DNA of 48,981 bases from Candidatus Saccharimonadota bacterium (GTDB taxonomy: Bacteria > Patescibacteriota > Saccharimonadia > Saccharimonadales > Saccharimonadaceae): assembly GCA_017545485.1 (NCBI GenBank), contig JAFWMY010000001.1:1-48981 (forward strand). Reading direction: 5' to 3'. The translations under genes were made by a program, and so were the position numbers. Numbering within the stretch: position 1 is the first letter of the stretch; each line of letters begins with the position of its first letter. Positions 1,341 to 2,597 of this stretch are shown here, piece by piece. A model generated the notes under the pieces. It was not told where the DNA came from. It was given only the letters and a program-made list of their open reading frames with translations, and searched no databases.

Positions 1341-2597
1341 ACAGAAGAACCATTGCAGCCACAAACTGCTCATGCTGGTTGCATCAACTACTTCGCTAAT
1401 GCCAGCAGTGCAGAAGGCACTATGGGCTGCCAGTCTATTAGTAATGATGGCGATACAGTAAAACTATTTGCTTCTAACTTCTCACGAGAAGGCTATGGCT
1501 TTGCTGGTTGGTCTGATGTCTATGACTATGCTACTAATTCTAACGCTCACTTCTATGGTCCTAATGAAGATTTTGTAGTGCCAACTGGTACTATCGCTAA
1601 TGGTCTAGCACTTTATGCTGTCTGGATTAAATCTGCTGGTACTATGCAAACTGATGCTCAGTCTGTCTGTAATAGCCTCACTGCTGCAACCTATAACAAT
1701 GAAGGGGACAGTGATGAAGCAACCTGGTCTATCACTGCAAACCTATCCAGTATCTCTGCTCTCACAGACAATAGAGATAACCAAACCTATGCTATCGCTA
1801 AACTCTCTGATGGTAAATGTTGGATGATAGAAAACTTAAGACTAGCAGATAAAGATAGTGACAATAATGACGTAATACTATCTAGCACTAATACCAACAA
1901 CCCATCATTACCACTCACTAATGTATATGATACTAGTGCTACTTCAAACCACTTATCTCCAACTTCAAGTATCGCCTACGCTGCGGATACTGCTCCAGAA
2001 GGCTGGTGTGATGCTACTAACTCTGCTGCCTGCTATGATCAATCACGTATCCGTACAGATAATACCGCAAATCGCGTTTCCTTCGCTAATACAAGTACCA
2101 TTATGTCAGATCATAACGTAAGCTTCTATTCCTATGGTAACTACTATAACTGGTATTCTGCTACAGCTGGTAATGGTAAATATAGCACAGGTAATGATGT
2201 AACCACTTCAGGCGACATCTGCCCAGCTGGCTGGCATCTACCTACAGGTACTGGCTCTGGCGAATTTGGCTTACTTAGTAACAGCTTAGGCGGTCGCAAG
2301 AATGCTAGTGATGAAGCACTAAACATGTCCAGTTCTACTACTCCAACTGCTGCCATTATAGACAAAAGACTCTGCCACTTCCCCAATAACCTGCTTCGCT
2401 CGGGCAGCGTTAGCGGCGCTTCCCTCAGCGATCGGGGCAGTAACGGCTACTTTTGGTCCTCTACGGCTGTCAGTAATAATAGCGCCTACAACTTGAGAAT
2501 CTCGGCCCGTAACGTCATCCCAGGCACACTCATAACCAATTATTACAAGTATTTCGGAAGGACAGTCCGCTGTATAGCTAGTAACCAAGGTTCTTAG
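669..2597 (+). CDS. Surface protein with InlB-like and FISUMP/C-lectin-like domains
   Basis: 642 aa. Residues about 8-30 are a hydrophobic signal or anchor. Residues about 40-235 form the Thr/Asn-rich N-terminal domain shared with both neighbours. Around residues 265-320 there is an InlB B-repeat/Flg_new-like segment (REGYGFAGWSDVYD, then ALYAVW). From about residue 375 the protein matches the Fibrobacter succinogenes major paralogous (FISUMP) domain: GKCWMIENLRL, ICPAGWHLPTG, NGYFWSSTA, FGRTVRCIAS. This domain belongs to the C-type-lectin/FGE-like group often used by diversity-generating retroelements. The last ~65 codons are GC-richer than the rest (see 2384-2580). Likely an exported adhesin or receptor; ligand unknown. 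The start at 669 follows an extended -10 box by 10 nt with no SD. Confidence 0.85.
   Translation: MKDHKKSILFLAPLSLIFIAILTGALLMSIKVKADDSIVDKVKITVPVSCTMSGTGMDSHTATVRNNEYTQNIGTTTLHAFCNDANGFAIYAAGYTGNEIGGTNSNKLVGTAATNNATIVTGLATSTPTPDVSNWAMKLAIQSDSGNTTGTNAVTIDSDTEGSFANYHTVPNEYKKVAHKNTATDMTASTGGVKLTTTYAAYISKTQPADTYTGQVIYTLVHPATEEPLQPQTAHAGCINYFANASSAEGTMGCQSISNDGDTVKLFASNFSREGYGFAGWSDVYDYATNSNAHFYGPNEDFVVPTGTIANGLALYAVWIKSAGTMQTDAQSVCNSLTAATYNNEGDSDEATWSITANLSSISALTDNRDNQTYAIAKLSDGKCWMIENLRLADKDSDNNDVILSSTNTNNPSLPLTNVYDTSATSNHLSPTSSIAYAADTAPEGWCDATNSAACYDQSRIRTDNTANRVSFANTSTIMSDHNVSFYSYGNYYNWYSATAGNGKYSTGNDVTTSGDICPAGWHLPTGTGSGEFGLLSNSLGGRKNASDEALNMSSSTTPTAAIIDKRLCHFPNNLLRSGSVSGASLSDRGSNGYFWSSTAVSNNSAYNLRISARNVIPGTLITNYYKYFGRTVRCIASNQGS
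2384..2580 (+). other. Candidate DGR variable region (3' end of FISUMP gene)
   Basis: The last ~65 codons of the FISUMP gene are markedly richer in G and C than the upstream coding sequence. They hold a run of codons ending in C or T at positions where FISUMP proteins normally carry Asn: AGC, GGC, GAT, GTC, ATC, CGT, CTC, ACC, TAT, TTC. The segment lies between conserved FISUMP anchors (NNLLRSGSV at the start, NGYFWSSTA in the middle, VRCIAS at the end). That is the pattern left by adenine-directed mutagenic retrohoming of AAC/AAT template codons. No template repeat or reverse transcriptase is in the window, so the call is inferential. Confidence 0.5.

What the first reader, a model, noticed from the sequence alone, without database searches (positions are those of the whole stretch)
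2384..2580. FISUMP surface gene ends in a DGR-like variable region, with no template or RT in sight
The 3' end of the gene at 669 differs sharply in composition from the rest. It has many NNC/NNT codons at sites where FISUMP lectin-like domains carry Asn, between invariant anchors (NGYFWSSTA, VRCIAS). Known: diversity-generating retroelements mutate template adenines, often in C-lectin-fold targets, and are frequent in CPR bacteria. Inferred: this gene is a target served by a remote RT/template, or a frozen remnant. The palindrome 38 nt after the stop may belong to the target signals.
Basis: partly seen in the sequence, partly recalled or inferred. Interest (0 to 1): 0.72.

Follow-up and report, generated by a model that had tools for sequence, protein, structure and literature searches.

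The report
Frozen target of a lost gene diversifier
The end of this surface-protein gene from a gut Saccharibacterium carries the site-by-site signature of a gene-diversifying retroelement that many sister species still have, but the assembled genome no longer shows the enzyme or the template, so the gene is most likely a former target stuck with its last version.

Summary
The gene at 669-2597 (642 aa) ends in a FISUMP domain. Its last ~60 codons are GC-rich and carry NNY codons at 18 of the 20 sites that are AAY in the template repeats (TRs) of diversity-generating retroelements (DGRs) of other species in the genus. In 11 close homologues those sites differ about three times more at codon positions 1 and 2 than neighbouring sites (p ~ 1e-5), but no more at position 3; where the amino acid allows a choice, 93% of codons there are NNY versus 62% elsewhere (p ~ 1e-9). 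That is the mark of adenine-directed mutagenesis. The window copy alone would not be significant. No DGR reverse transcriptase (RT) or TR was found in the genome (885 kb, 26 contigs, 99% complete), although 97 of 174 genomes of the genus have the RT. Two codons that adenine mutagenesis of AAY cannot make, and the lack of any sister copy, favour a frozen target over a served one. The palindrome after the stop is chance-level. FISUMP targets, DGRs in the Candidate Phyla Radiation and RT-less leftover targets are already described. A side finding is stranger: a congener with no detectable RT carries over 100 headless VR cassettes.

The parts
669..2597 (+). Surface-protein gene (642 aa), N-terminal hydrophobic segment, C-terminal FISUMP domain
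2046..2576 (+). FISUMP domain (PF09603, aa 460-636)
   Evidence: 53 of 54 aligned homologues also match
2397..2576 (+). DGR-type variable region: 18 NNY codons at 20 TR-AAY sites between fixed anchors
2496..2498 (+). AGA at a TR-AAY site: cannot arise from AAY by adenine mutagenesis; later mutation or a different template codon
2502..2504 (+). TCG at a TR-AAY site: second exception
2630..2652 (.). Imperfect palindrome CCATTCCAGAGCTCTGGGTATGG; at chance level, probably not part of the system

Best explanation
The 3' end of the gene is a DGR variable region that an adenine-mutagenic retroelement wrote in an ancestor (or in a donor lineage), with a template coding mainly Asn (AAC/AAT) at about 20 positions of the FISUMP domain. 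The RT and TR were then lost from this lineage. The gene stayed intact, with the region upstream evolving as under purifying selection, so the protein still displays what is probably a binding surface, but one fixed sequence of it rather than a changing repertoire. Shown: the site-specific mark, real FISUMP DGRs in the genus, and absence of RT and TR from this assembly. Inferred: past writing of this very gene, loss rather than non-assembly, and the binding role.
For: Independent site prediction: columns that are AAY in 12 congener TRs differ at codon positions 1/2 by 0.57/0.60 in the window subfamily, versus 0.24/0.15 elsewhere (permutation p 1e-5); position 3 is equal (0.41 vs 0.47). Upstream of the VR the pattern is the usual one, position 3 most variable. 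NNY among amino acids with a choice: 93% vs 62%, p 1.5e-9. Genus DGRs are real: 36 TR/VR pairs beside RTs (some loci counted twice through two searches), 769 mismatches, 754 at TR A; many of the RTs carry the motifs IGNxTSQ and YxDD. RT in 97 of 174 genomes of the genus and not in this one, with two profiles. All 24 TR-profile hits in this genome lie in FISUMP frames of at least 281 aa, whereas in most RT-bearing controls the top hit is a short-frame TR beside the RT. An IUPAC pattern allowing TR=A finds only the gene itself in 60 genomes. No other DNA match in the genome exceeds 24 nt.
Against: The genome is a 26-contig draft with 4.1% contamination, and several contigs end inside FISUMP genes, so an RT/TR locus could be missing. 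Congener G030 shows the risk: no RT was found, yet it has over 100 cassettes with fresh-looking DGR variation. Decay of the NNY mark in RT-less genomes is not significant at genome level (p 0.10). The window copy alone does not prove writing. Against congener TRs the window VR differs nearly as much at non-A as at A, so its own template is unknown.
Confidence: 0.7

Rival explanations
1. The DGR is still active: its RT and TR sit in an assembly gap or on an unsampled element and keep rewriting this gene in trans.
For: Draft assembly with contig ends in FISUMP genes. RT-less G030 carries fresh-looking DGR variation, so an RT can be missed or recently lost.
Against: 99% completeness. The FISUMP genes cut by contig ends lack 5' ends while their 3' flanks are assembled, and in the one locus read in full (L081) RT and TR lie on the 3' side of the target. 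No sister VR from the same template in the genome, AGA/TCG at two target codons, no TR in viral contigs and no similar DNA in plasmids.
Confidence: 0.17
2. The gene, with its VR already written, came by lateral transfer from a DGR-bearing relative and was never a target in this lineage.
For: The closest homologues (about 68-73% DNA identity) occur in RT-less (G138, G010, G202) and RT-bearing (G044) genomes.
Against: This genome holds a dozen or more FISUMP tails, several with the same mark, which suggests resident history. No species tree was built to test transfer.
Confidence: 0.08
3. No DGR was involved: positive selection or recombination among paralogues produced the variable tail.
For: The domain is a plausible binding surface and the genome is rich in paralogues.
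Against: Selection on the protein does not predict kept third bases at exactly the sites that are AAY in other species' TRs. No stretch over 24 nt is shared with any paralogue, so no recent gene conversion.
Confidence: 0.04

Closest known systems
FISUMP-targeting DGRs of Saccharibacteria (e.g. locus L081 in genome JAFWNJ/G044)
   Same: Same domain, same variable columns, similar anchors (RGSxGxxWS, Kxx-G--VRC)
   Different: Those loci have RT and TR within a few kb; the window genome has neither
RT-less leftover DGR targets in Treponema denticola isolates (PMC4891356)
   Same: Target gene with diversified VR in genomes lacking RT and TR, read as remnants
   Different: There the template is known from sister isolates; here no template in any of 60 searched genomes of the genus matches this VR
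DGR target genes with the Fib_succ_major Pfam domain in human microbiomes (PMC4159848)
   Same: Same Pfam domain as DGR target
   Different: Those were identified as targets of detected DGRs; here no DGR components are detected

Membership tests
Diversity-generating retroelement (active cassette) | DGR-type reverse transcriptase in the genome | tested here: not met
   PF00078 and a 17-sequence congener RT profile: no match in G000; 97 of 174 genomes of the genus match
Diversity-generating retroelement (active cassette) | Template repeat matching the VR except at TR adenines | tested here: not met
   IUPAC search in 60 genomes finds only the VR itself; TR-peptide profile finds no short-frame TR in this genome
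DGR target (variable region) | Variation confined to codon positions 1/2 of template AAY codons, third base kept | tested here: met
   Subfamily level: p 1e-5 for positions 1/2, 93% vs 62% NNY, p 1.5e-9; window copy alone 18/20, not significant after correction
DGR target (variable region) | Stem/cruciform signal just downstream of the VR (present in a subset of DGRs) | tested here: not met
   Window stem p 0.19-0.33; most of 24 active congener VRs have a stem at p<=0.02
DGR target (variable region) | C-type-lectin or similar ligand-binding fold | tested here: inconclusive
   Model pLDDT 75, pTM 0.81; no significant PDB match
DGR target (variable region) | Strain-level polymorphism at the variable codons | not testable with these tools
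   One genome per species is held and no reads
FISUMP (Fib_succ_major) family | Score over curated cut-offs of PF09603 and TIGR02145 | tested here: met
   42.6 vs 33.9 bits; 76.3 vs 41.65 bits

The most novel reading that the evidence does not exclude
In this genus DGR-written variable regions can be stored and reused without the RT: congener G030, with no detectable RT, carries over 100 headless VR cassettes with fixed 5' anchors, so recombination from cassettes or between paralogues, not only reverse transcription, could still vary FISUMP genes such as the window's. For the window genome itself no cassette was found, so this would need donors outside the assembly.
Probability: 0.06. Interest if true: 0.8.

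Novelty: new member of a known kind. Interest (0 to 1): 0.38.

Why it matters
It shows that the DGR mark in a target gene can be read from template positions borrowed from sister species, even when the genome shows no RT and no template. Of 110 good-quality genomes of the genus 62 have the RT and 108 have FISUMP tails, so unserved targets appear to be common in this genus, and counting DGRs by RT alone understates how far this kind of diversification has shaped surface proteins of Saccharibacteria.

Tried and rejected
TR within the genome: rejected by BLAST, IUPAC (TR=A allowed, 3 mismatches) and TR-profile searches. Template on a viral contig or plasmid: nothing (the phage collection was not searched). 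Palindrome as target signal: chance level. Comparing the window VR with each congener TR directly: uninformative, because non-A divergence is nearly as high as A divergence. Decay of the NNY mark in RT-less genomes: zero-exception tails 12/39 (RT+) vs 4/37 (RT-), but not significant at genome level (p 0.10), and chosen after seeing the data. Structure search for the lectin fold: no significant PDB match.

Full report
What is there. The gene at 669-2597 encodes a 642-aa protein with an N-terminal hydrophobic segment and a C-terminal FISUMP domain (PF09603, TIGR02145). The window is contig C12 of an 885-kb draft genome (26 contigs, 99% complete, 4.1% contamination). Its closest named homologues are in Candidatus Saccharibacteria, mostly from ruminant guts. 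The last ~60 codons stand out: 51% GC versus 41% for the rest of the gene, GC3 62% versus 29%, and four codons unused upstream.

Is it a DGR variable region? I used templates from other species as an independent prediction. RT loci of congeners gave 36 TR/VR pairs with 769 mismatches, 754 at TR adenines; some loci are counted twice because two searches brought them in. In congener G044 the pair differs at 18 positions, all TR adenines, in the FISUMP tail of a surface protein. I aligned 12 such TRs with 11 members of the window subfamily, the window gene included. At the 20 columns that are AAY in most TRs, they differ at codon positions 1 and 2 by 0.57 and 0.60; at 33 other columns by 0.24 and 0.15 (permutation p 1e-5). 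Position 3 does not differ (0.41 versus 0.47). Upstream of the VR the homologues show the ordinary pattern, with position 3 most variable. Among amino acids that have both NNY and NNR codons, NNY is 93% at the TR columns and 62% elsewhere (p 1.5e-9). These p-values treat related sequences as independent, so they are optimistic. Protein-level selection does not predict kept third bases at exactly these columns, so I conclude that the family has been written by an adenine-mutagenic element. The window copy has 18 of 20 NNY codons, but on its own (7/9 versus 20/28 with choice) it would not be significant.

Is it still served? PF00078 finds no RT in the genome, nor does a profile of 17 RTs that rings in 97 of 174 genomes of the genus. 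A pattern that allows A at every VR base finds only the VR itself in 60 genomes. A TR-peptide profile finds 24 places in this genome, all inside frames of at least 281 aa; in most RT-bearing controls its best hit is a short-frame TR beside the RT. No other DNA in the genome shares more than 24 nt with the VR, so there is no sister copy and no recent gene conversion. Two target codons, AGA (2496) and TCG (2502), cannot come from AAY by adenine mutagenesis. Of the genomes with the closest homologues, JAFWBV (G138), JAEEUB (G010), CAMYZY (G202), JAFWMR and JAFWDS show no RT, and JAFWNJ (G044) has it. Together this favours a frozen target.

What limits the claim. The assembly is a draft and contigs end in FISUMP genes. 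The genes cut by contig ends lack 5' ends while their 3' flanks are assembled; in the one DGR locus read in full, RT and TR lie on the target's 3' side, which makes a missed locus less likely but not impossible. Congener G030 is a warning: no RT found, yet its VR cassettes look freshly varied. Decay of the mark in RT-less genomes was not significant at genome level. Strain variation could not be tested.

The palindrome. CCATTCCAGAGCTCTGGGTATGG at 2630-2652 scores at shuffle level (p 0.19-0.33; DNA fold z -0.46). Most active congener VRs have a clear stem in the same region; a hairpin/cruciform downstream of the VR is known from a subset of DGRs (PMC3521204). The window gene has no such stem.

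Against the literature. Fib_succ_major is a known DGR target domain (PMC4159848). A DGR clade restricted to Patescibacteria is known (PMC8144416). Targets left in genomes without RT and TR are described in T. denticola (PMC4891356). So this is a new member of a known kind; the use of sister-species templates to show the mark in an orphan target is the useful part.

Side finding. In G109 one TR (C29) matches a dozen or more VR copies outside full-length FISUMP genes, some arranged in ~220-nt tandem units. In G030, 134 TR-profile hits lie almost all in short frames, in clusters of mixed orientation, several of them between housekeeping genes. Forty cassettes of one type share a 42-nt 5' anchor with 0-2 mismatches and vary mainly at positions 1 and 2 (29 of 33 variable columns). 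Whether these are silent donors for expressed genes is untested.

Noticed in passing
Congener G030 (RT not detected), e.g. L234:8539-11734, L235:1966-3407, L236:2077-5024, L243-L272: Over 100 headless FISUMP VR cassettes of at least three types, in clusters of mixed orientation, several between housekeeping genes. Forty copies of type A share a 42-nt 5' anchor (0-2 mismatches) and vary mainly at codon positions 1/2 of DGR-type sites: a possible silent archive.
   Followed up: partly
Congener G109: L202:9032-10262, also L203, L204, L205, L213; TR at L214:1562-1761: Tandem ~220-nt units of headless VR copies matching one TR, with roughly 70-90% of mismatches at TR adenines.
   Followed up: partly
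L029, L045, L115, L116 and other active congener VRs, downstream flank: Stem-loops past the VR often carry a loop like GAGCC-NNNN-GCGA, perhaps a conserved target signal of this DGR group.
   Followed up: no
window 2864-4831: The next gene shares its N-terminal ~220 aa with the FISUMP gene (83% DNA identity) but ends in DUF285/PARCEL repeats instead: same N-terminus, swapped C-terminal module.
   Followed up: no
G000:C20 around 5.4-10 kb and 119.6-124.4 kb: Frames of 3371 and 1822 aa hold several FISUMP domains in a row.
   Followed up: no
window 4-540 (-): The contig starts inside a gene that shares the N-terminal region of the FISUMP gene (46% protein identity).
   Followed up: no
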